Source: an uncultured Bacteroidota bacterium
GTDB lineage: Bacteria > Bacteroidota > Bacteroidia > Chitinophagales > Chitinophagaceae
Length of the DNA stretch: 36,840 nt
Direction: 5' to 3'
NCBI GenBank assembly: GCA_903882965.1
Contig: CAIRZD010000252.1
Span: 1 to 36,840, forward strand
In this document: piece after piece, positions 14,830 through 34,335 of the stretch
Layout: every line of letters begins with the position of its first letter
Numbering within the stretch: position 1 is the stretch's first letter
The notes under the pieces: model-generated
What the model saw: the letters and a program-made list of their open reading frames with translations, nothing else
Told to the model about the DNA's origin: nothing
The model's database searches: none
Program-made: the position numbers and the translations under genes

Positions 14830-15024
14830 ATGCTGAATATTAACGGTGAGAAGTATCTCGTTGAAAAGGAAATTTCCGCTAAATATGGGTTATCGATACA
14901 CTGGTTTCGGCGAGCCCGATACGAAGAGAATGGCCCCGTGTATCACAAGCTCCATGGGAATGTGTATTACAAAGAAGAAGATGTTATCGAATGGTTTAAG
15001 GAGAATCTCATTCCAAGTCGATAA
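14830..15024 (+). CDS. HTH DNA-binding protein (AlpA/excisionase-like)
   Basis: 64 residues on the plus strand, alone among minus-strand late genes. The sequence YLVEKEISAKYGLSIHWFRR, then GPVYHKLHGNVYYKEEDVIEWF follows the winged-helix pattern of AlpA/excisionase-type MerR-like proteins: a recognition helix after the first turn, a Gly-containing wing with VYYKEEDV, and a final helix. ATG 14830 has AAAGGGA at good spacing. It could regulate the adjacent scaffold operon or act as a directionality factor for the serine recombinase at 22821; the first fits its location better. An overlapping longer frame is a shadow. Confidence 0.75.
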   Translation: MLNINGEKYLVEKEISAKYGLSIHWFRRARYEENGPVYHKLHGNVYYKEEDVIEWFKENLIPSR

Positions 15025-22575: not shown

Positions 22576-22824
22576 TCAACTGTTATCTTCATTGTCTTCC
22601 TTATCATCATGTAACGCCTGACCGATTGCTACATCTAGTGCAATATTGTCTGGATTTAAAATACCTTCATTCATCTCTCTAACCATATGGACTAAAAAGA
22701 TGTAAGCCTTTTGTATAGCTTCTGGATTGCGTGTCTTGACGCTACGCTCCATGTTGTCAAAAAACTTATGAACGTTTTTAAGCTCACGCAAGACGCCTAG
22801 TCGCATCTTATTAATGTCCTTCAT
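22576..22824 (-). CDS. 82-residue hypothetical protein
   Basis: Start overlaps the serine recombinase stop by four bases (ATGA). Sequence MKDINKMRLGVLRELKNVHK, FFDNMERSVKTRNPEAIQKA, then YIFLVHMVREMNEGI and an acidic Asn/Asp-rich tail (DDKEDNEDNS). All-helical and acidic at the end. Coupling to the recombinase suggests linked expression; no family recognised. Confidence 0.65.
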   Translation of the reverse strand: MKDINKMRLGVLRELKNVHKFFDNMERSVKTRNPEAIQKAYIFLVHMVREMNEGILNPDNIALDVAIGQALHDDKEDNEDNS

Positions 22825-23390
22825 CGCTTCGGCGCTTTATCCAATAATTTGTAAATAGAAGCACGGCACACATTCATGGTCATGGCTATTTTTCTAATGC
22901 TCATGCCTTGCTCGTGTAATTCTTTGGCTTGCTTTTTATGCTTATCATTGAGAACGGCTGGGCGACCCATCTTTTTACCTGATTTTTTAGCAAGCTCTAT
23001 GACTTCGCGTTGACGAGCCCTTATCACACTACGTTCAAACTCAGCAAACGCACCCATGATATGCAACGTCAAGTTTGCCATATGGTCTTGTGCGCCACTA
23101 AACCGTAAATTTTCTTTTACAAATTGAACTATAACGCCTTTGTTAACTAGGACGTCTAGTATATTCTTCAGGTCTCTAAGGTTTCTAGCCAATCTATCAA
23201 TGCTGTCGATGTATAACATGTCTCCATCTCGAACATATTCCATGCAACTTTTAAGTTCAGGCCGATTGGTAGAGCTTCCACTTACCATATCCACAAATCG
23301 ACGATCAAGTTCAATATTTTGCAATTGTCTTTCTGGATTTTGGTCGATAGATGACACTCTTAAATAACCGATTGATTGATGACTCATCAT
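22821..23390 (-). CDS. Small serine recombinase (resolvase/invertase)
   Basis: 189 residues from ATG 23390, which overlaps the stop of the upstream gene (ATGA); a frame start at 23414 would lack a ribosome site. Catalytic Ser13 is in GYLRVSS; the conserved SIDRLARNLRDL, FSGAQDHMANLTLHIMGAFA and EFERSVIRARQREVIELAK segments follow. A C-terminal HTH (GMSIRKIAMTMNVCRASIYK) binds DNA. Enzymes of this size resolve dimers or invert segments and are not large integrases. It may resolve genome multimers, invert DNA, or act as the only integration candidate. A 32-bp dyad at 23932-23963 is a possible target. Confidence 0.9.
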   Translation of the reverse strand: MMSHQSIGYLRVSSIDQNPERQLQNIELDRRFVDMVSGSSTNRPELKSCMEYVRDGDMLYIDSIDRLARNLRDLKNILDVLVNKGVIVQFVKENLRFSGAQDHMANLTLHIMGAFAEFERSVIRARQREVIELAKKSGKKMGRPAVLNDKHKKQAKELHEQGMSIRKIAMTMNVCRASIYKLLDKAPKR

Positions 23391-23626
23391 TCCTCGTTCA
23401 TTTCTAGTAAACACATGGCATGTGAAATTAAAGATTCTGCTTCTCTTAAATGTGATTCAGCTATTTTTCTTCTACTCCAACGATCATCGCAATAGTTATC
23501 AATCATGGATTGTGTTTTATCTCTAAGCTTAAAGTGCAATTCTAATCCGTGACCTTGCGAACCATTATGGATGTCATTAGTCATATCAATAATTTCTTGC
23601 AGATCTTCTTTCGTGAAATCATTCAT
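23387..23626 (-). CDS. 79-residue hypothetical protein
   Basis: Starts directly after the stop of the coiled-coil/membrane gene and overlaps the recombinase start by four bases. Sequence MNDFTKEDLQEIIDMTNDIH, then QGHGLELHFKLRDKTQSMID, DDRWSRRKIAESHLREAESL. Helical, soluble and charged. Such EDLQEIID..N-type small early phage proteins are common but unassigned. Confidence 0.65.
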   Translation of the reverse strand: MNDFTKEDLQEIIDMTNDIHNGSQGHGLELHFKLRDKTQSMIDNYCDDRWSRRKIAESHLREAESLISHAMCLLEMNEE

Positions 23627-24025: not shown

Positions 24026-24277
24026 GCCCGCTAGATTATTTACTGGTAATATGTTAGCACCTAGCGCTGTGATTCCGAATCGTTACCGGATGGCTGGCTT
24101 TTGGTTTTGCCAATAGGATGACCGCTCGTCCAAATGATTAATATTGATAGAGTGCCAGGCTTTCACTGGCTTCAGTCCCTAATACTGCCGACCCTTGCAG
24201 TCTCCTCAGAAGATTACTTCCGCATATGGCCGTCGGAGAATAGCCTCCCACCATTACCTAGGCTGGCTGGGTTAGGT

Positions 24278-24360
24278 TGTACGGGCAGGACTCGAACCTG
24301 CGACCTCACGCAAACAGGCGTGGCTCTAAGCTGACGCTCTACCAACTGAGCTACCGTACA
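24278..24360 (-). tRNA. tRNA-like gene with aberrant anticodon region
   Basis: 83 nt. Acceptor TGTACGG pairs fully with CCGTACA. TA, then D stem GCTC/GAGC with AGTTGGTA loop, and T arm GCAGG-TTCGAGT-CCTGC are all canonical. Variable-loop sequence AGGTC matches ordinary tRNAs. Between D arm and variable loop there are about eleven bases too many. No standard 5-bp stem with 7-nt loop is possible. A perfect stem CACGC/GCGTG encloses a 6-nt loop CTGTTT, and the stretch before it contains a second TAGAGC, as if part of the D arm were duplicated. CCA is not encoded (ACCT). Isotype cannot be assigned; it may be a degraded Asn-like tRNA or a non-translating tRNA mimic. Confidence 0.6.
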
Positions 24361-24364
24361 ATGT

Positions 24365-24775
24365 TCATTCCTTGGATGATGCCCTACATTTATGCGTAGT
24401 CAACCCGTTTAGCATTTCATGGCAAACGGGACAATGCGCACACCACATTGGATTATAGCCATGCCCCTTAACGTACTCCGCATTTGCATTTGGCACTTCT
24501 TGCTCTACTCGCCAAGGCGTTCTATCTTCAAAGTAAATGTTACGACCATCTGCTGCCAGCACACTCTTAACGGCCTCGGGTAAGCGGTCATGACTACTAA
24601 TAACGGCCTGTAAAACTTCACCTTTGATGTCAGTAAACATCATTACCCACTTTTCGCCTACAATTTCTCGTATCTTCTCTGTTTCTGTCTTCTCTTTAGG
24701 TAAGCAATAACAATGAGGAAGCCATGGGGCATTTATTTTGTGACACCTCGTACATTCCCAAGGCTGATTGGTCAT
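24365..24775 (-). CDS. Zinc-ribbon protein, unknown
   Basis: 136 residues. The N-terminus WECTRCHKINAPWLPHCYC has the W-x-C-x2-C...N...C-x-C order of RanBP2-type small zinc fingers. A second cluster at the C-terminus is CAHCPVCHEMLNGLTTHKC. The middle (TDIKGEVLQAVISSHDRLPE, then AADGRNIYFEDRTPWRVEQE) is a small alpha/beta domain. Protein or RNA binding is likely; no named family. Stops four bases before the tRNA-like gene and overlaps the upstream gene by four bases. Confidence 0.65.
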   Translation of the reverse strand: MTNQPWECTRCHKINAPWLPHCYCLPKEKTETEKIREIVGEKWVMMFTDIKGEVLQAVISSHDRLPEAVKSVLAADGRNIYFEDRTPWRVEQEVPNANAEYVKGHGYNPMWCAHCPVCHEMLNGLTTHKCRASSKE

Positions 24776-24990
24776 AGCTCTTCGAACTCCTGTGTATAAA
24801 TTAAATCAGGCATATCTTCTTCGAAGTCTTCGGCGATTTCTTCAAGGAATCGGTGTAAGTCTATCATGGCTTGTTTGTAACCTGTATTAAATCCACAGGA
24901 GAAGCTAGCGGGTTCGCTGTGAACAAGATTTGGAAGTTTTAAGGCAATCTCCTTAAACTTCGCATTAATATATGCGTTAAGAACACCCAT
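24772..24990 (-). CDS. 72-residue acidic hypothetical protein
   Basis: Sequence MGVLNAYINAKFKEIALKLP, FNTGYKQAMIDLHRFLEEIA and an acidic tail EDFEEDMPDLIYTQEFEEL. All-helical, acidic at the end. ATG 24990 behind AAGGATATATT; its stop overlaps the zinc-ribbon gene start. The GYKQAMxDLxRFLEE pattern is found in small early phage proteins of unknown role. Confidence 0.65.
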   Translation of the reverse strand: MGVLNAYINAKFKEIALKLPNLVHSEPASFSCGFNTGYKQAMIDLHRFLEEIAEDFEEDMPDLIYTQEFEEL

Positions 24991-27536: not shown

Positions 27537-27805
27537 TATGGTTCGCCCCTCTGCGCTTTGACAGGTACGGGCGGATTTTCCATTGGTTGAGTTAATCCAT
27601 GAGAATAGTCTGGAAAGCCTGTTTTAATCCAAACCTCAACATGCAGGTTTAATGCCTCAATAGGCAATTCACCTCTGCGCATATCGTCTTTGTCTTCCTC
27701 GCTCATCAGCCTTGTAGTGATGAGACGAAGTTCAATTTTGTGTTTTAATGCAATTTTACGGATGATGTTTTTACAGGCATCATCGCTTAACTTTTGTTCA
27801 CACAT
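27533..27805 (-). CDS. 90-residue hypothetical protein
   Basis: Sequence MCEQKLSDDACKNIIRKIAL, KHKIELRLITTRLMSEEDKD, DMRRGELPIEALNLHVEVWI, then a Pro-rich tail. Start lies in the last codons of the primase-helicase gene (19-bp overlap). Probably expressed with it. No family recognised. Confidence 0.6.
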   Translation of the reverse strand: MCEQKLSDDACKNIIRKIALKHKIELRLITTRLMSEEDKDDMRRGELPIEALNLHVEVWIKTGFPDYSHGLTQPMENPPVPVKAQRGEPY

Positions 27806-29625
27806 GAGTACTCGATGTAAGGTCTTGCTAGTAAACTTTCGCGTTCCAAGTATTGACCTGATGGTTCATGAAACCAGAACCCTACAACACCTTCCTTGAA
27901 TTTCCCGCGTCCATGTCGATTCTTGTCACACTTCAAAAAAGAATCATGCTCCTTTAAAACTTCATACTCGTCAGGTGTTAGGTAATCACCGCGTGCCTGA
28001 CGTCTTACGATTTCCTCTTTTGCTTTGTTTCTCCACACCGCAAAGCAATTATCAGCAAGGTCACTGATTGCGCCGCCGCCTCTGATATCATACTTTCCTG
28101 GGATTTCAGACTCATCACGAGGTTTTCTAGGATGTGTCACCAAGTGGATGTGACAATTGTATTGCAACTTGAAGTCTCTAAGCTTCTCAGTGAGTTCTTT
28201 TTGACCATTATAATCATCTTCAGCAATGTTTAAGGTGGTTAATGAATCGACGATAAATACATCTACACCATAACGACGACGTGCGTACAAAAATACTTCC
28301 AATAGTCGTTCTATTTTCCCAGTTCCAACCAAATTGAAGATAAAAAGATTTCGTTCAAGCCATGTATCGACTGCCTTGATGAACTCAAGTGACGGTGATT
28401 GCTGTGCGGTTGTTTGCAAATAGGTACGTGCCATCAACTCAGCAGGGTAAAGCTCCATGCTTGCAACACAAACTCGTGCGCCTTGACGAATCATGTTCAA
28501 CATGACCTGACCTAAAAACAGAGTCTTACCATGCCCATTGTAACCAGTCCACATCGTCAAGCCTGATGGTTTAAATAGAAAATGGTCTTCGCATTTTTCC
28601 CATCCTAGGTTATAGCCTAGAAACTTTCCTGGTACTGGATGAATAATTTCATAGGCTTCCATCGTGAAGTCACTGTGTGGTCGAAGCTCTTCTGGATCAA
28701 GTGATTTCGCATCGTCAATAAAGAACTGAATATCTTCTTTTGACAGACCATTCATCAAGCATTCGTTCGCGTCCTTCATGGGCAACTCAACAAGCCGGCA
28801 ACGATGAGCGTCAAGTCGGTTGACAATTTCCTTTGCCGCTTCCTGACCTGCATCGTCGTTGTCCATACAAATAAAAATCTCATCAAAACGATTTAGGTTC
28901 TCGATTTCATACTCAAGCCAACGTTGCTTCTCGCCTCTGCCTCCACCAAATGGAACTGAGAGAGCAGGAATTCCGTATTGACAAAAGCTCATCGCGTCTA
29001 ATTCGCCTTCACAGATAACCACTGTTCTGGCATGTGGTGGTATAACTTGCCAGCCAAACAAACATGGTTCAGCGTTCGGAGACACAACTATCTGCTTTTT
29101 ACCGTCTTTGCGTTCAAGCTTCATTCGTTTAACAAAAATGATTTCTTTATCACGAATGTAATTGAAGACAATCTCGCTTTCGCTATGAGGTATCTTAAAA
29201 CGCTGTATAACGGTCTCTGAGAGCTTTCTTGTATTAGACAGGTAGATGTGTACCGGAGACATGGTTTTAAGAGGTTCTACGGGGGTTTTCGGAGGTTTGG
29301 TGAATGTTTTTTTTGAGGGTCTTGTTGCTTTGTACCCAGAAGTTGAAAAATTGAAGTAATCTGCAACTTCTTTCATCGCTTCAACAGTGCTTTGACCTTT
29401 TATTTTTGCCCACAAATCCAACATATCTCCGCGCTCACCTGTTGCAAAGTCTGCCCATACTCCGGCCTTCGCACCTTTCAAGTGAACTTTAAGCGATTCA
29501 CCTTTTTCGCCTTGAATGGAGCCTACACACCACTCACCGCTTTTTTTCTCACCGTTCGGTAGTAAGTCCCGAACAATTTCTTCACAACGTTGCGCAAGAA
29601 GCGCCGACAACTCTGTAGCTAACAT
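27787..29625 (-). CDS. Primase-helicase, T7 gp4/Twinkle-like
   Basis: 612 residues. N-terminal CHC2-like region (GKKSG/WCVGSIQGE.., GVWADFATGERGDMLDLW, residues 28-72) has lost the zinc cysteines. Toprim domain: VVICEGELDAM (202-212) and FICMDNDDAG (251-260). Helicase domain: Walker A GYNGHGKT (361-368), Walker B FIVD (457-460), HLVTHPRKP (494-502) and RGGGAISDLADN (515-526), a full DnaB/gp4-type RecA core. The protein should unwind DNA and prime the lagging strand. ATG 29625 lies six bases after the initiator stop. Together with the initiator and the iterons it forms the replication module. Confidence 0.93.
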   Translation of the reverse strand: MLATELSALLAQRCEEIVRDLLPNGEKKSGEWCVGSIQGEKGESLKVHLKGAKAGVWADFATGERGDMLDLWAKIKGQSTVEAMKEVADYFNFSTSGYKATRPSKKTFTKPPKTPVEPLKTMSPVHIYLSNTRKLSETVIQRFKIPHSESEIVFNYIRDKEIIFVKRMKLERKDGKKQIVVSPNAEPCLFGWQVIPPHARTVVICEGELDAMSFCQYGIPALSVPFGGGRGEKQRWLEYEIENLNRFDEIFICMDNDDAGQEAAKEIVNRLDAHRCRLVELPMKDANECLMNGLSKEDIQFFIDDAKSLDPEELRPHSDFTMEAYEIIHPVPGKFLGYNLGWEKCEDHFLFKPSGLTMWTGYNGHGKTLFLGQVMLNMIRQGARVCVASMELYPAELMARTYLQTTAQQSPSLEFIKAVDTWLERNLFIFNLVGTGKIERLLEVFLYARRRYGVDVFIVDSLTTLNIAEDDYNGQKELTEKLRDFKLQYNCHIHLVTHPRKPRDESEIPGKYDIRGGGAISDLADNCFAVWRNKAKEEIVRRQARGDYLTPDEYEVLKEHDSFLKCDKNRHGRGKFKEGVVGFWFHEPSGQYLERESLLARPYIEYSCVNKS

Positions 29626-29631
29626 ATGACC

Positions 29632-30405
29632 TCACAAGGTTGGGTTAATTTTTTTTGATTGAGTTTTACCGTTCCTTGGTTTTGTTTCATCAACTATCCA
29701 TTCCATTTTCAACGACTGCCATCCTGATGTCACCATCGCTTCAAAGCAGTATTGAGGTTGTAGACCGTGTTTTAAGCATCGGTCGAGTTCTTTGATAATT
29801 CCTTTCCAGGCTGTTTCTGTAATCGGTGCTCGTTTCGTTCTTCGTACTTCCAGCCAATCCTGCAAGACCTGAATAGTAATCTTATGCGGATTGTTAGCCA
29901 GCATCATATCAAGTGGTTTTGAAGGCTTAGAAGAAGCTGACGACACAGGCGAATCTTGTTCGCCTATATCTTTATCTTTTGGGATCTTATCTTCTGGGAT
30001 CTTTGGGTGTCTCTGTGTGACACTAGGTGGTGTCTCTGTGTGACACTGGGGTGGTGTCTCTGAGAGACACCCCTTAGTTAAATTTGGACTAACAACATCT
30101 TTCTTTTTTGTTCGCCAAATGAACTTACCTTTTGATATTTCAATGTGTTCTAAGTAGCCTTTGTCAATGAGAACTTTCGCCATCTTCATTGCATTACGTC
30201 GGTTCATTCCAAGTTGTTCGCCAAGCCAAGCATAAGAGAACGATGGATTAACATTTGGATCGGGATTAGATTCCATCTGTTCAATCTGGCCATAAAGGCG
30301 TAAATGATTTGCATTTAAGTCAAGGTCGTAAAGGATATAAAAGGGAATAACAGCACGGTAAGGGGTAAAACGTTGAGAAGGGTGGTTGTCATTAGTGCAA
30401 GTCAT
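29632..30405 (-). CDS. Replication initiator, O-like winged-helix protein
   Basis: 257 residues. Residues about 15-100 form an N-terminal winged helix: VIPFYILYDLDLNANHLRLY, then FSYAWLGEQLGMNRRNAMKM, AKVLIDKGYLEHIEISKG. This resembles the HTH of phage replication proteins such as lambda O. A disordered Pro/Thr/Lys linker (113-175) is encoded by the iterons and the purine-rich stretch. The C-terminal domain (KITIQVLQDWLEVRRTKRAP, then AWKGIIKELDRCLKHG) probably contacts the helicase. The weak ribosome site suggests coupling to the upstream frame. Located immediately before the primase-helicase gene. Confidence 0.8.
   Translation of the reverse strand: MTCTNDNHPSQRFTPYRAVIPFYILYDLDLNANHLRLYGQIEQMESNPDPNVNPSFSYAWLGEQLGMNRRNAMKMAKVLIDKGYLEHIEISKGKFIWRTKKKDVVSPNLTKGCLSETPPQCHTETPPSVTQRHPKIPEDKIPKDKDIGEQDSPVSSASSKPSKPLDMMLANNPHKITIQVLQDWLEVRRTKRAPITETAWKGIIKELDRCLKHGLQPQYCFEAMVTSGWQSLKMEWIVDETKPRNGKTQSKKINPTL
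29950..30070. other. Probable replication origin inside the initiator gene
   Basis: Three dyad iterons (30007-30070) are followed, in the direction of initiator transcription, by an A/purine-rich stretch on the minus strand (30004 down to about 29950) that includes the direct repeats AAGATCCCA and GATAA. Lambda ori has the same plan inside gene O: iterons, then an AT-rich unwinding segment. I infer that the initiator binds these repeats and loads the gp4-like helicase. Confidence 0.7.
30007..30070. repeat. Three 17-bp iterons with internal dyad
   Basis: GTGTCTCTGTGTGACAC at 30007-30023 and 30030-30046, and GTGTCTCTGAGAGACAC at 30054-30070, spaced 23 and 24 bp. All have GTGTC/GACAC arms; the third is a perfect 8-1-8 palindrome. 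Period close to two helical turns. Confidence 0.9.
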
Positions 30406-30412
30406 GATATAA

Positions 30413-30571
30413 TTATCCCGTAGTTTGTGCGCAAGGTTCTATGGACGCGAAAAAGCCCAGCGCAGAACACGTTGTTTTAAAATCTGAATTGAACTTTGGT
30501 CGGTAGCAATTCAAACACCATATTGTCGAAGCTGTAGAGGCAGGAAGCCTCCAAAACTTCCTAATTATCAT
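30413..30571 (-). CDS. 52-residue leader frame before the initiator (tentative)
   Basis: ATG 30571 to TAA 30413, eight bases before the initiator start. Sequence MIIRKFWRLPASTASTIWCL, then FKTTCSALGFFASIEPCAQT. GGGAG lies too close to the ATG, though AAGGG is found further up. It could be a short leader protein coupling translation to the initiator, or a chance frame in an untranslated leader that also holds the hairpin GAGGC-N5-GCCTC (30537-30551). Confidence 0.35.
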   Translation of the reverse strand: MIIRKFWRLPASTASTIWCLNCYRPKFNSDFKTTCSALGFFASIEPCAQTTG

Positions 30572-30785: not shown

Positions 30786-31136
30786 CTAGTTAACCTTTTT
30801 CTCATCTGCGCTGAAATGTGTCTCAAGCGTCATGAATAACTTCTTGCTGAGTTCATGAAGGTCGTCATTCATGCGATTAAATACATTGATTTTGATGCCT
30901 GTTTCGATGGGATTCATCATAGCTTGAGCGAGATTTGCAAAGATGTTAGCCGTCACCATGACCAGCATTTCTGGCGGCTTAATGTCGTAATTTCTTGACT
31001 CAGGAGTCAAATAGAATTGCACAATACGCCGGTTGACACTATTGATAATATCAAGGAGCACATTTTGCATGGGGCTTTTGTCGTCAAACTCGCTCGTATC
31101 GGAGAAGACGACGCTATTTTCGAAGTCTTTTATCAT
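30786..31136 (-). CDS. 116-residue hypothetical early protein
   Basis: Sequence MIKDFENSVVFSDTSEFDDK, SPMQNVLLDIINSVNRRIVQ, then PPEMLVMVTANIFANLAQAM and MNDDLHELSKKLFMTLETHF. Alpha-helical, acidic, no motif. Start three bases from the previous stop. It belongs to the early leftward unit. Function unknown. Confidence 0.65.
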   Translation of the reverse strand: MIKDFENSVVFSDTSEFDDKSPMQNVLLDIINSVNRRIVQFYLTPESRNYDIKPPEMLVMVTANIFANLAQAMMNPIETGIKINVFNRMNDDLHELSKKLFMTLETHFSADEKKVN

Positions 31137-31139
31137 TCA

Positions 31140-31523
31140 TCACCTTTGCGCTAGCCATTCTTTGAGATGGGCTAGATTGCAAAAGTTCATGAACCTTTCA
31201 AGCTCTCCAGGTTTACTAGGCTGGACACTAGACGCTTGACGTCCTTCTTCCATTACCCTAATTCGATAAGCACTTTCTTCAGTTACATAACTAATATCAC
31301 CATGACAAAAGTCACAGTTGACCGTGTATTTCTCACTCATGGGTTTAGCTCCTTCTAAGAACAAAATGGTCTCACATAACTTCTCTACTTCCCGTGTAGA
31401 ACGCCACAAATCGGAATTGCGGTTTAATCTGTATTGTTGTAACACATAAATGTTGAGGACGCCACCAGACTCAAGTTGCCGGCGCCATTCCTTTCTTTCT
31501 TCTGTGAGCCAGGTGTATTTCAT
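31140..31523 (-). CDS. 127-residue hypothetical early protein
   Basis: Begins MKYTWLTEERKEWRRQLESG, GVLNIYVLQQYRLNRNSDLW, then a second part starting MSEKYTVNCDFCHGDISYVT and ending GELERFMNFCNLAHLKEWLA. NCDFCHGD and FCNLAH give two Cys-containing knuckles that could bind zinc, like small early zinc proteins of phages. An internal ATG (MSEKYTV) has AAGGAG upstream (GAAGGAGCTAAACCC), so a shorter second product is possible. Start overlaps the membrane peptide stop (ATGA). Confidence 0.65.
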   Translation of the reverse strand: MKYTWLTEERKEWRRQLESGGVLNIYVLQQYRLNRNSDLWRSTREVEKLCETILFLEGAKPMSEKYTVNCDFCHGDISYVTEESAYRIRVMEEGRQASSVQPSKPGELERFMNFCNLAHLKEWLAQR

Positions 31524-31624
31524 TTCCCTTTAATAAGCTTTAAGAGCTTCCACATAGACCTCAATAAAACTATTTGAATAATAATTAAACCACTCAAAAA
31601 TAGCAGCCCTACACATTCATTCAT
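31520..31624 (-). CDS. 34-residue membrane peptide
   Basis: ATG 31624 overlaps the end of the Cro-like gene; stop overlaps the next start as ATGA. Sequence MNECVGLLFLSGLIIIQIVL, then LRSMWKLLKLIKGK: a hydrophobic helix followed by a basic tail. Coupling at both ends supports translation. Possibly a small inner-membrane effector such as a superinfection-exclusion or lysis peptide; not proven. Confidence 0.5.
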   Translation of the reverse strand: MNECVGLLFLSGLIIIQIVLLRSMWKLLKLIKGK

Positions 31625-31805
31625 CGTCACTTTCCTTTTCTGCTTTTAGTTTTCCGTTACTCACCACCTCAAGAACACATTGTAGTTTGAACGGTATTTT
31701 GTCTTTCTCCTTCCAAGAAAGCACAGTCCCTCTTGCGATATGAAGCGCCTTACAGATGTTAATCATCTTATAATCGTAGTACGCCATAACTTCACTAAAT
31801 TTCAT
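31617..31805 (-). CDS. Cro-like repressor
   Basis: 62 residues. MKFSEVMAYYDYKMINICKA, LHIARGTVLSWKEKDKIPFK, then QCVLEVVSNGKLKAEKESDD. The NICKALHIARGTVLSWKE segment (residues 15-32) is a helix-turn-helix of the P22 Cro type, followed by the IP(F/L) turn and a helix (LQCVLEVVSNGKL). It is the first gene leftward from the interlocked promoters, and is the natural candidate to bind the palindrome TACAATTGTA near its own transcript start and repress one or both promoters. No CI-type partner is present. Confidence 0.75.
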   Translation of the reverse strand: MKFSEVMAYYDYKMINICKALHIARGTVLSWKEKDKIPFKLQCVLEVVSNGKLKAEKESDDE

Positions 31806-31832
31806 AATTCACCATATTTTTGTACAATTGTA

Positions 31833-31861
31833 TTGACAAACTATATCGGATTAGGCATTAT
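31833..31861 (+). promoter_or_regulatory. Promoter for the recombination operon
   Basis: TTGACA at 31833-31838, 17-bp spacer, CATTAT at 31856-31861. The transcript would start near 31868 and read the leader peptide and the exonuclease gene. It overlaps the opposite promoter almost completely. Confidence 0.7.
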
Positions 31862-31868
31862 GTGTCAA
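31840..31868 (-). promoter_or_regulatory. Promoter for the Cro-like gene and leftward early unit
   Basis: Minus strand TTGACA at 31868-31863, 17-bp spacer, TATAGT at 31845-31840. The start would fall near 31832, at the palindrome TACAATTGTA (31823-31832), a likely operator. Each promoter's -35 box lies beside the other's -10. Confidence 0.75.
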
Positions 31869-31895
31869 TGCCCTTTTGTGGCTAAGGACGGAAAC

Positions 31896-31946
31896 ATGAA
31901 AACGGATATTTTCATTTTTACGCAGAGAACTAGGAGATTGATATGA
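31896..31946 (+). CDS. 16-residue leader peptide of the recombination operon
   Basis: ATG 31896 behind AAGGACGG; reads MKTDIFIFTQRTRRLI and stops at TGA overlapping the exonuclease ATG (ATGA). The DNA also forms a weak hairpin, ATGAAAA / TTTTCAT (31896-31915) followed by T5, so translation of the leader may compete with attenuation. Confidence 0.45.
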   Translation: MKTDIFIFTQRTRRLI

Positions 31947-32785
31947 TTACTGAGCAACAACGCGAAGAGCGTAAGTTGGGCATTGGTGGTTCTGATATGC
32001 CTATCATTATGGGGTTGTCTTCTTACAAGACGCCTTATCAACTTTACCTTGAGAAAGTAGGTGAAGTAGAGACATCAATGGAAATGACTGATCCGCAGTA
32101 CTGGGGTTCGATGTTAGAGGGAGTCATTCGGGATGAATTTGCGAAGAGAAATAATGTGGTGGTTGAAACGCCTGATACCTGTGTTCATCCTTTCAACGAT
32201 TACCTTCGTGGCAATATCGATGGCTTTATTCCTGCTTGGAACGCTGTTCTTGAAGTTAAATGTGCCTCTAGCTTCATGGCTCACGAGTGGGGTGAAGATG
32301 GTTCTGATACCATTCCCTTGCCATATCTTGTACAAGTCGCTTTTTACTGCGCTGTTCTCAATGCTGATTGTGCGTATATTGCGGTATTAATTGGCGGCAA
32401 TGACTACCGAGAATTTAAATATACCCGTGATTTAGTACTTGAGAATAAAGTCCTTGAAGAAGCTGCTGCGTTCTGGAAGCGTGTACAGGATAAAAACCCT
32501 CCTGAGGCCGTCAACCAAACCGATTTAAGAATCATGTTCCCCAAACATGACCCTGAGAAAACCAAAACAATTGCAGACCCAGTTGCGGAACAATTAACAC
32601 AATTGTCTGATACTCGTTTAAAAATCAAACAACTTAGTGAAGTAGAAGAAAAATACAAATTTAACATTATGCAATTTATGCAAGATGCTGAAGTTTTAGT
32701 TGATAATAATAACAAACCTATCGTCTCATGGAAAAGCAACAAACGCGGTAGTAGAACGTTTTTATTGAAAGGGGTAACACAATGA
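31943..32785 (+). CDS. YqaJ-family phage exonuclease
   Basis: 280 residues. Motifs in order: LGIGGSDMPIIMGLSSYKTP (12-31), WGSMLEGVIRDEF (54-66), LRGNIDGFI (88-96), AVLEVKCAS (101-109) and YLVQVAFYCAVLNADCAYIA (128-147). Asp93, Glu104 and Lys106 form the PD-(D/E)xK site. Proteins of this type (YqaJ/lambda Exo class) degrade the 5-prime strand of linear duplex DNA to feed single strands to an annealase. C-terminal 80 residues form a helical extension. It heads the rightward operon with Bet and SSB. Ribosome site AGGAGATTG. Confidence 0.9.
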   Translation: MITEQQREERKLGIGGSDMPIIMGLSSYKTPYQLYLEKVGEVETSMEMTDPQYWGSMLEGVIRDEFAKRNNVVVETPDTCVHPFNDYLRGNIDGFIPAWNAVLEVKCASSFMAHEWGEDGSDTIPLPYLVQVAFYCAVLNADCAYIAVLIGGNDYREFKYTRDLVLENKVLEEAAAFWKRVQDKNPPEAVNQTDLRIMFPKHDPEKTKTIADPVAEQLTQLSDTRLKIKQLSEVEEKYKFNIMQFMQDAEVLVDNNNKPIVSWKSNKRGSRTFLLKGVTQ

Positions 32786-32964
32786 TTAACTATTGGTGGG
32801 AAATAACCCAAGAAAAAGAATATGACGGATTTACGGTAACGATAAAAGCTAATTCAGACACAATTTGTGTACAAGATTACTTTGATACTGAAGATGACGC
32901 AGAATTATACGCAACGACCTATCTACGAGGTTATAGAGACGCATTAGGAGATTTTAATGAGTAA
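32782..32964 (+). CDS. 60-residue hypothetical protein in recombination operon
   Basis: Starts by ATGA overlap with the exonuclease stop. Sequence MINYWWEITQEKEYDGFTVT, IKANSDTICVQDYFDTEDDA, then TTYLRGYRDALGDFNE. Alpha-beta, acidic, its stop overlaps the bet start. Position between exonuclease and annealase suggests an accessory or inhibitor of recombination. No family recognised. Confidence 0.7.
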   Translation: MINYWWEITQEKEYDGFTVTIKANSDTICVQDYFDTEDDAELYATTYLRGYRDALGDFNE

Positions 32965-33928
32965 CGCTTTAGTAATGAATAATGACCAAGAGCTAGTCAT
33001 GTGGGATGATGCCAAGAAGCTTGAAGAGATTCGTAAGCTATTCGCCCCAAAATTAAGTGACATGGAGTTTAAATTCTTTGTAGGCCTTGGTAAGGCTTCA
33101 AGATTAAATCCATTCACCCGTGAAATTTGGGCTGTTAAATATCAGGATAGCGCCCCAGCACAAGTATTTATTGGTCGAGACGGTTACAGGAAAGCTGCTC
33201 AAGCGCACTCTGATTATGATTTTCACCAATGCGATGCCGTTTATGAGAATGATGACTTTGATGTCGTTAATGGGGAAGTTCACCACAAGTATAAGCTCAC
33301 TAATCGGGGAGCTCTCGTAGGCGCTTACTGTATAGCGAAACGCCATAAATCCTCGCGTCCGATGTATGTTTTTGCAGACTTAAAAGAATATTCCACTGGT
33401 AAAAGCCTTTGGAACCCACAAACAGGAAAGCCAGCAACCATGATTAAGAAAGTTGCTGAGAGCCAGTGCCTTCGTGCTTGCTTCCAGGATTTGCTAGGCG
33501 GAACTTATGGTGAAGAAGAATTTCACCACCAAGACGAACAGAGTAAAATGAGAGTAATTCATGGTAATACCAATACCCAAAAACTTAAAAACATACTCGG
33601 CATAGGAGAAAATGATGACAAGGAATCTCATAATGGTGTTATTGATAGCGATACTGGTGAATTTATTCCTGCTGAATCTGGTGACGTTTCATCATCACAG
33701 AGAGCTTCAGAACCCAAGAAAGATAGAGTGGACGGGAAATCTAACACTGGACAACCTCCCAGCAGATTATCCGGAGACCAATTAGAGAGGATTGAAGAAT
33801 TATTTACTCAAAAGGAGTTTAATCAAGAACGAGTCAAGAAAGCGTTTGGCTATTATAAAGTAAAGGATATACAGGATTTGGATAGTGCAACCGCACAAAA
33901 TCTTATTTCACAATTGGAGCGAGCATAA
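32957..33928 (+). CDS. bet: Single-strand annealing protein, Bet/RecT family
   Basis: 323 residues. The core (EFKFFVGLGKASRLNPFTRE, IWAVKYQDSAPAQVFIGRDG, YRKAAQAHSDYDF, then CIAKRHKSSRPMYVFADLKE and PATMIKKVAESQCLRACF) is the Bet signature: sugar-phosphate binding and oligomer ring of lambda-type annealases. Residues about 200-275 are a charged, disordered linker; the last 45 residues form a helical C-terminal domain that may bind SSB. It overlaps the next gene by one base (TAATG). Confidence 0.92.
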   Translation: MSNALVMNNDQELVMWDDAKKLEEIRKLFAPKLSDMEFKFFVGLGKASRLNPFTREIWAVKYQDSAPAQVFIGRDGYRKAAQAHSDYDFHQCDAVYENDDFDVVNGEVHHKYKLTNRGALVGAYCIAKRHKSSRPMYVFADLKEYSTGKSLWNPQTGKPATMIKKVAESQCLRACFQDLLGGTYGEEEFHHQDEQSKMRVIHGNTNTQKLKNILGIGENDDKESHNGVIDSDTGEFIPAESGDVSSSQRASEPKKDRVDGKSNTGQPPSRLSGDQLERIEELFTQKEFNQERVKKAFGYYKVKDIQDLDSATAQNLISQLERA

Positions 33929-34335
33929 TGATTAATTACGCAATGTTACTAGGACGTGTAGGCAAGAAAGATAACCGTACGCTTAAAAATGGGAGCGAGA
34001 TGACTTCGCTTTCCATTGCGACAAGCAGGAAATACAAGGACTCTTCGGGTAACTCCCAAGAGCAAACCACTTGGCATAATATAAGTTGCTTTAGCAAATT
34101 AGCTGAAGTGGCTAACAAATATGTCCATGTAGGCGACATGATTTTTGTTCAAGGTGAGATTCAACACAAAAAGATTGAACAGGGTGAACGTGCCGGCCAA
34201 TATGCTTATTCAGTCCATGCGAACGAGATAAAATTTGTACCAGGTGGAAAAAAATCTGACGGCCAATCAAAACCCAGTCAAGAAAAACCCGCCACTAAAC
34301 AAATGGATTTTGAAGATGATGAGTGTCCATTTTAA
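33928..34335 (+). CDS. ssb: Single-stranded DNA-binding protein
   Basis: 135 residues: OB-fold start (INYAMLLGRVGKKDNRTLKN, SLSIATSRKYKDSSG, QTTWHNISCFSKLAEVANKY, VHVGDMIFVQGEI), polar linker and an acidic tip DFEDDECPF, the SSB C-terminal tail that recruits partners. Shorter than bacterial SSB, usual for phage versions. Last gene of the plus recombination operon, converging on rusA with a 4-bp overlap. Confidence 0.92.
   Translation: MINYAMLLGRVGKKDNRTLKNGSEMTSLSIATSRKYKDSSGNSQEQTTWHNISCFSKLAEVANKYVHVGDMIFVQGEIQHKKIEQGERAGQYAYSVHANEIKFVPGGKKSDGQSKPSQEKPATKQMDFEDDECPF

What the first reader, a model, noticed from the sequence alone, without database searches (positions are those of the whole stretch)
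31823..31868. Face-to-face promoters interlocked within 36 bp
Plus promoter TTGACA-17-CATTAT and minus promoter TTGACA-17-TATAGT occupy the same DNA: each -35 lies beside the other's -10, with arms ATTGACA and TGTCAAT at the outside. Two polymerases cannot bind at once. One drives the Cro-like gene, the other the recombination operon. With a palindrome TACAATTGTA at the leftward start, this may be a compact bistable switch without a CI-type repressor.
Basis: partly seen in the sequence, partly recalled or inferred. Interest (0 to 1): 0.75.

Follow-up and report, generated by a model that had tools for sequence, protein, structure and literature searches.

The report
Two phage promoters sharing one site
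A little-known group of bacterial viruses appears to start two early gene sets, in opposite directions, from one 36-letter stretch of DNA that should fit only one copying enzyme at a time; many relatives keep this layout, but it looks like a hub held in check by one repressor rather than a two-way memory switch.

Summary
Plus promoter TTGACA-17-CATTAT and minus promoter TTGACA-17-TATAGT interlock at 31833-31868 between a leftward cro/O-like/helicase operon and a rightward YqaJ/RecT/SSB operon. Of 43 IMG/VR relatives examined, 30 keep the arrangement (one with a 1-bp insertion), 12 lack it, 1 is too short. A geometry-only scan of IMG/VR gave 31 stretches, 27 beside a Cro-like gene (20 of them on contigs already found); the reversed pattern gave 0. 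In 28 distinct modules -11A and -7T of both promoters are invariant, while the central 10 bp is hardly better conserved than the left flank. The promoters are overlapping and divergent, not convergent. The palindrome TACAATTGTA occurs only in the window and its closest relative. Integrase and S24 repressor: 0 of 20 relatives. Best reading: a bidirectional early promoter, probably closed in both directions by Cro, perhaps at a 17-bp pseudo-palindrome (31852-31868); that site is a weak, after-the-fact prediction. A bistable switch is not supported: only one regulator was recognised in the two operons. The layout has a precedent in plasmid pLS20 (Pc/Pr); its use as the hub of a CI-less lambdoid-like lineage was not found in the papers searched.

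The parts
31833..31838 (+). -35 hexamer TTGACA of rightward promoter
   Evidence: TTGACA in 27 of 28 distinct modules (24 of them were kept only if they began TTG)
31856..31861 (+). -10 hexamer CATTAT of rightward promoter; off-consensus C at -12 kept in 25 of 28 modules; predicted start about 31868
31863..31868 (-). -35 hexamer TTGACA of leftward promoter
31840..31845 (-). -10 hexamer TATAGT of leftward promoter; -12T, -11A and -7T invariant in 28 of 28 modules; predicted start about 31833
31852..31868 (.). Candidate 17-bp Cro operator TAGGCATTATGTGTCAA (pattern TTGnCA-N5-TGTCAA; perfect in L076), covering the plus -10 and the minus -35
   Evidence: picked after looking, 18 of 28 modules match 4-6 of 6, 10 match 3 or fewer; binding not shown
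31823..31832 (.). Palindrome TACAATTGTA; not conserved (window and L002 only), probably chance
31617..31805 (-). Cro-like protein, 62 aa; starts 27 nt from the module, 25-31 nt in relatives
   Evidence: PHROG 409 E 1.3e-14; PF14549 P22_Cro E 4.5e-6, below gathering score; P22 Cro 1rzs E 0.19; model pLDDT 87, N15 Cro TM 0.80
31140..31523 (-). Second ORF of leftward operon, no family at E 0.1
30786..31136 (-). Third ORF of leftward operon, no family at E 0.1
29632..30405 (-). Replication initiation O-like protein
   Evidence: PHROG 678 E 3.9e-31
27787..29625 (-). DNA primase/helicase
   Evidence: PHROG 239 E 2.7e-119
31943..32785 (+). YqaJ/RecE-like exonuclease, first main gene of rightward operon
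   Evidence: PF09588 E 1.7e-24; PHROG 434
32957..33928 (+). RecT family annealing protein
   Evidence: PF03837 E 1e-29
33928..34335 (+). Single-strand DNA binding protein
   Evidence: PHROG 44 E 8.4e-31
31896..31915 (+). Possible GGA-loop hairpin ATGAAAA-CGGATA-TTTTCAT in the rightward leader
   Evidence: the minimum-energy fold of the whole window leader pairs these bases otherwise
31896..31946 (+). 16-codon leader ORF whose stop overlaps the YqaJ start (ATGA)

Best explanation
The 36-bp element is a single bidirectional early promoter of a lambdoid-like phage lineage in which no CI was recognised. Host sigma70-type RNA polymerase binds it in either orientation, one at a time, firing leftward into cro and the replication genes (O-like, primase/helicase) or rightward into the recombination genes (YqaJ exonuclease, RecT, SSB). 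As Cro accumulates it probably binds inside the element, perhaps at a 17-bp pseudo-palindrome (31852-31868) that covers the rightward -10 and the leftward -35, so one repressor closes both operons. It would act as an early pulse with negative feedback, not as a memory switch. Shown: sequence, geometry, conservation, gene context, predicted Cro fold. Inferred: promoter activity, mutual exclusion, Cro binding, its place, and shut-off.
For: Geometry kept in 30 of 43 relatives and found by pattern alone in 31 IMG/VR stretches, 27 beside Cro-like genes, 0 for the reversed pattern. Promoter-type conservation in 28 distinct modules: mean pairwise identity 0.90 for plus hexamers, 0.80 for minus hexamers, 0.46 central 10 bp, 0.44 left flank, 0.34 right flank; -11A and -7T invariant in both promoters. 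L024's 1-bp insertion lies where it changes only the minus spacer, to 18 (by eye). Cro starts 25-31 nt from the module. Module kept in L076 although its right operon is different (AAA_24 ATPase, DUF669). Cro involvement: central-module distance tracks Cro distance (r 0.67; partial given YqaJ 0.62; 0 of 2000 permutations; 27 pairs); the best single residue is 27, in the predicted recognition helix. Columns 20-25 match the inverted right arm at a mean of 3.68/6, other offsets tested 0.32-2.21, which would explain the off-consensus C at plus -12 in 25 of 28.
Against: No transcript or binding data. 12 of 43 relatives lack the geometry; by eye 6 of these still have a divergent HTH-type ORF (L021, L026, L028, L032, L035, L042), and L028 keeps a close Cro homologue and the plus promoter without a clear minus one. 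Modules were chosen partly by TTG...CAA ends and best score, or by the pattern, so invariance is partly by construction. The Cro/module correlation may be linkage or shared descent: the left flank also tracks Cro (0.58), and given it the partial is 0.47; residues 15, 8 and 40, outside the recognition helix, come next. Operator: 10 of 28 modules match 3 or fewer of 6 (L024 partly by its insertion), the window matches 4, and the paired columns at that centre show no co-variation beyond column make-up (excess -0.08). A18, kept in 25 of 28, is unexplained. For PY54 and phiKO2, relatives of N15, Cro is suggested not to repress its own gene (PMC4488713, PMC4997575). The host, hence its sigma factor, is unknown.
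Confidence: 0.62

Rival explanations
1. Bistable switch: polymerase competition plus unequal Cro action on the two promoters holds cells in one of two states, as proposed for pLS20 Pc/Pr.
For: Mutually exclusive promoters and a regulator on one arm; in pLS20 the favoured Pr boxes coincide with the -35/-10 of the divergent Pc and the regulator acts differently on the two (PMC4207663, passages).
Against: Cro is the only regulator recognised in the two operons; predicted operator overlaps both promoters; palindrome not conserved; integrase in 0 of 20 relatives searched, so no obvious second state to hold, though records may be fragments.
Confidence: 0.08
2. The symmetry is only an operator (TTGACA...TGTCAA dyad) for a regulator and the promoter look on one strand is a by-product.
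For: Outer dyad is near perfect. Geometry hits in three acidobacterial MAGs lie, by eye, at a VapBC-like gene pair, where a palindromic operator over one promoter yields a mirrored promoter.
Against: Both -10s vary as sigma70 sites do, with -11A and -7T invariant; a gene starts at a near-fixed distance on the Cro side and a gene with a leader lies on the other.
Confidence: 0.1
3. Two promoters that only compete for polymerase, with no Cro control of the site.
For: Operator is inferred and weak in 10 of 28 modules with no co-variation excess; the Cro/module correlation could be linkage; PY54-type Cro is suggested to spare its own promoter (PMC4488713).
Against: Off-consensus C at plus -12 in 25 of 28 has no promoter reason; T20 in 19 of 24 and G22 in 21 of 28 are kept too, though G22 could serve an extended -10; partial correlation with Cro remains after the left flank is allowed for.
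Confidence: 0.2

Closest known systems
pLS20 Pc/Pr overlapping divergent promoters (Ramachandran 2014, PMC4207663; passages read)
   Same: In the authors' favoured reading the -10 and -35 of Pr fall on the -35 and -10 of Pc; one arm drives the regulator, the other a functional operon; polymerase binds only one
   Different: Gram-positive plasmid; RcoLS20 activates its own promoter at low level and loops DNA; boxes coincide rather than abut; regulator is not Cro; conservation across a lineage not described in the passages read
Bidirectional promoters of E. coli and Salmonella (Warman 2026, PMC12825309, abstract and sections 4, 14, 22; PMC10268837, passages)
   Same: One DNA site fires in both directions, one polymerase at a time
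   Different: Those are defined by starts 7-25 bp apart and a shared -10; here starts are predicted 35 bp apart, no shared -10, each promoter has its own perfect -35
Lambda/P22 early region: PL, PR, cro, O, exo/bet (recalled)
   Same: cro then replication genes one way, recombination genes the other; Cro-like regulator
   Different: PL and PR are separated by cI and its neighbours in lambda; here both fall into 36 bp and no CI was recognised
N15, phiKO2 and PY54 immB with Cro (PMC4997575, PMC4488713; passages read)
   Same: Nearest fold to this Cro is N15 Cro; PY54 and phiKO2 Cro bind one 16-bp operator
   Different: They have a prophage repressor gene opposite cro, and Cro is suggested not to repress cro itself

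Membership tests
Bidirectional promoter (Warman/Grainger definition) | Divergent starts 7-25 bp apart | tested here: not met
   Predicted starts 35 bp apart from hexamer positions; starts themselves not mapped
Bidirectional promoter (Warman/Grainger definition) | Shared, overlapping -10 element | tested here: not met
   -10s at 31840-31845 and 31856-31861 do not overlap
Overlapping divergent promoters (pLS20 Pc/Pr kind) | Two opposite promoters over the same DNA with each -35 at the other's -10 | tested here: met
   here the boxes abut with one base between
Overlapping divergent promoters (pLS20 Pc/Pr kind) | Both promoters transcribe | not testable with these tools
   needs start mapping; conservation pattern supports it
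Cro (P22/N15 type) | Small all-helical HTH fold, related sequence | tested here: met
   PHROG 409 E 1.3e-14; N15 Cro TM 0.80, prob 1.00, Foldseek E 0.021, no hit under 0.001; Pfam P22_Cro 26.8 bits, under its 30.2 cut-off
Cro (P22/N15 type) | Binds operators in the early promoter region | tested here: inconclusive
   distance correlation and a candidate 17-bp site only
Lambdoid lysis-lysogeny switch | CI-type repressor gene beside cro | tested here: not met
   none recognised beside cro in the window; elsewhere one weak PHROG hit, E 0.018, at 24772-24990; relatives: HTH_3 in 2 of 20, S24 in 0 of 20
Lambdoid lysis-lysogeny switch | Integrase | tested here: not met
   PF00589 in 0 of 20 relatives; 15 matches in G000, none on the window's contig C252; invertase/resolvase-type recombinase in window and 3 of 20 relatives

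The most novel reading that the evidence does not exclude
A lambdoid-like phage lineage has folded lambda's two early promoters and their operators into one 36-bp element with a single Cro site, and uses polymerase competition plus Cro with unequal action on the two directions to set a CI-less decision (productive growth versus a carrier state).
Probability: 0.1. Interest if true: 0.8.

Novelty: new variant of a known kind. Interest (0 to 1): 0.5.

Why it matters
It is a natural, compact, conserved case of two promoters with perfect -35 boxes locked in one footprint, with 28 distinct sequence versions in hand. That gives a ready series for measuring how polymerase competition and one repressor set the ratio of two operons, and points to an early phage control region that may work without CI.

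Tried and rejected
Palindrome TACAATTGTA as operator: rejected, seen only in window and L002. General dyad search over 27 loci: no single centre stands out by mean complementarity (best 0.49, centres 4, 20 and 28); by co-variation excess the best centres are -8.5, in the leftward leader (0.87), and 44, at the start of the rightward leader (0.65), while centre 28 has -0.08. Centre 28 was pursued because its columns include the unexplained T20, G22 and C24. More copies of the 17-bp site in the window: 3 at <=1 mismatch including the module; no shuffle was run. Named phages: no Cro match at E 0.01; YqaJ matches in 251 phage and 16 plasmid records, all under 60% identity, best listed 35.9% and 36.9%. 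Rfam over 31500-32200: nothing up to E 1. 16S in the MAG: none, host not named. OOP-like antisense promoter at the O start: of 18 relatives tried, 8 gave an O match; L002 has the same site at the same place, and L053, L015 and L018 have a different site (TTGAAT-18-TATAAT) at -16, +62 and +74 from an O start that is only roughly placed; left open. My first handle pattern had wrong -10 wildcards and matched only 6 of 20; not used.

Not in print: the listings of searches (held open library, capped lists of 1 to 15 titles and abstract starts) showed no report of this arrangement in a phage; subscription papers are not covered.

Full report
What is there. Two sigma70-type promoters share 31833-31868. 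Rightward: TTGACA, 17 bp, CATTAT. Leftward: TTGACA, 17 bp, TATAGT. Simulation puts such a pair at about 0.007 per window (2 in 300 simulated windows at >=21/24). Starts are predicted at the outer edges (31833 leftward, 31868 rightward), so the transcripts diverge; 'face-to-face' is not the right word, 'overlapping divergent' is.

Context. The window is one whole contig of a draft genome of 508 contigs, which I take for a metagenome-assembled genome. Of 98 related genomes 97 have no match to the YqaJ protein and one has a weak, partial match. The contig is a phage: terminase, portal, endolysin, O-like protein, primase/helicase. Its ends share no exact overlap of 15-400 bases, but in relative L095 the genes that lie at the two window ends follow each other on one contig, so I infer a circularly permuted, near-complete phage genome. 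From the ORF list most genes run leftward; the main rightward block is YqaJ-RecT-SSB. The module is thus the divergence point of the map (inference).

Conservation. 46 IMG/VR loci encode relatives of the YqaJ protein; I examined the 43 closer ones, L002-L044, and left out the three distant ones (L045-L047). 29 have both promoters in the exact 36-bp frame, L024 has them with one extra base (minus spacer 18), 12 lack the arrangement, L005 is too short to tell. Several of the 29 are near-identical: with the window they give 24 distinct modules. Of the 12, by eye on the ORFs printed, six show no Cro-like ORF there and six have a divergent HTH-type ORF, mostly of another type; L028 has a close Cro homologue and the plus promoter but no clear minus promoter. 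A geometry-only scan of IMG/VR found 31 stretches: 26 with Cro-like and YqaJ, one (L076) with Cro-like and a different right operon, four with neither; the reversed pattern found none. 20 of the 27 lie on contigs, 7 are new. L024, L076, L080 and L098 bring the distinct modules to 28.

Why promoters. In the 28 modules the plus hexamers have 0.90 mean pairwise identity, the minus hexamers 0.80, the central 10 bp 0.46, left and right flanks 0.44 and 0.34. The -11A and -7T of both promoters are the same in 28 of 28, while -8 and -9 of the minus -10 and -9 of the plus -10 vary most. That is the sigma70 pattern (established knowledge), not that of a plain dyad operator. Caveat: 24 modules were kept only if they began TTG, ended CAA and scored well in the best frame, and three came from the pattern scan, so part of the invariance is by construction. 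An indel inside the shared DNA would usually harm both promoters, which may be enough to explain the stable frame.

Cro. The 62-aa product matches PHROG 409, weakly Pfam P22_Cro and P22 Cro 1rzs (E 0.19). Its model (mean pLDDT 87.4 from 19 sequences) is closest to N15 Cro (TM 0.80, E 0.021). Across 27 module/Cro pairs the central module changes with Cro (r 0.67; partial 0.62 given YqaJ; 0 of 2000 permutations). Linkage or descent may cause part: the left flank also tracks Cro (0.58, 28 pairs), and given it the partial is 0.47. Cro residues 24-33 correlate more (mean 0.31, 8 sites) than the rest (0.15, 36 sites), with residue 27 highest (0.56), but residues 15, 8 and 40 come next (0.50, 0.46, 0.43).

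Where Cro may bind. T20 (19 of 24), G22 (21 of 28; it could also serve an extended -10) and above all C24, an off-consensus -12 base of the plus promoter (25 of 28), ask for a reason. With A25 they spell TTGnCA, an inverted copy of TGTCAA at 31-36, giving a 17-bp pseudo-palindrome; it is perfect in L076. Mean match to the right arm is 3.68/6 here and 0.32-2.21 at the 13 other offsets tested; 18 of 28 match 4-6, 10 match 3 or fewer. Against it: the paired columns show no co-variation beyond their make-up, and A18 (25 of 28) stays unexplained. A Cro dimer there would cover the plus -10 and the minus -35 and close both promoters. This was found by looking and is a prediction.

Not a bistable switch on present evidence. 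One repressor on one arm, acting on a site common to both promoters, gives negative feedback. In 20 relatives searched: integrase 0, S24 peptidase 0, HTH_3 2, resolvase 3; records may be fragments. In L038 the HTH_3 gene follows cro; in L028's record two lie just before a terminase-like ORF (by eye). In the window itself 30 of 106 listed ORFs were scanned against PHROGs and 10 against Pfam.

Compared with the known. pLS20 Pc/Pr has, in its authors' favoured reading, the same interlock with boxes that coincide (PMC4207663, passages). E. coli and Salmonella bidirectional promoters share a -10 and have starts 7-25 bp apart (PMC10268837, passages; PMC12825309, abstract and sections), and the five tested compete only when one direction is strongly activated. 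PY54 and phiKO2 Cro bind a single 16-bp operator and are suggested not to repress cro (PMC4488713, PMC4997575, passages), a caution for my operator. So the kind is known; the conserved phage hub with two perfect -35s and no recognised CI is a variant I found no report of in the listings of searches.

Noticed in passing
window 31896-31915 (+) and the leaders of relatives: Hairpin with GGA in the loop, often over the start of a tiny leader ORF; mean Watson-Crick stem 5.39 against 2.39 in shuffles over 28 leaders (0 of 100 shuffle sets reach it), with stems that differ but still pair. Shuffles ignore relatedness and count leaders without GGA as 0; L003 has none, in some (L007, L022, L029, L031, L098) the best one lies elsewhere, and the window's minimum-energy fold pairs otherwise. 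Candidate control of the recombination operon.
   Followed up: partly
window 31896-31946 (+): Leader ORF of 16-22 codons whose stop overlaps the YqaJ start as ATGA in 16 of the 30 distinct leaders listed; suggests translational coupling.
   Followed up: partly
first 40 nt of the rightward leader in relatives: Short 5' stem-loop; mean Watson-Crick stem 4.68 against 3.59 in shuffles, 0 of 100 reach it.
   Followed up: partly
window 30386-30413 (+): Strong promoter-like site (TTGTCA-16-TATAAT, extended -10) at the start of the O-like gene pointing back against the leftward operon, like lambda OOP in placement (recalled); same site in L002, a different TTGAAT-18-TATAAT site near the O start in L053, L015 and L018.
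   Followed up: partly
window 24275-24360 (-): tRNA-like gene with an unclear four-base anticodon (taga); phage tRNA or old attachment site.
   Followed up: no
window 22821-23414 (-): Serine recombinase of invertase/resolvase type in a phage contig without a tyrosine integrase; found in 3 of 20 relatives.
   Followed up: partly
window 14830-15024 (+) and 24772-24990 (-): Small ORFs with weak regulator hits: excisionase/regulator PHROG 66 E 6e-4 and CI-like repressor PHROG 11451 E 0.018.
   Followed up: no
L076:9575-12089: Cro-like gene and module kept beside a different right operon (AAA_24 ATPase, DUF669), so the module can outlive exchange of the right-hand genes.
   Followed up: yes
L113:581, L116:730 (reverse), L117:1518: Same promoter geometry in three acidobacterial MAGs, by eye at a VapBC-like gene pair, with near-perfect palindromes; an operator palindrome can create a mirrored promoter.
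   Followed up: partly
L021 upstream of YqaJ: By eye, another interlock of a different frame (TTGTAA-17-TACAAT against TTGTAA-17-TACAAC) beside a different HTH-type ORF.
   Followed up: no
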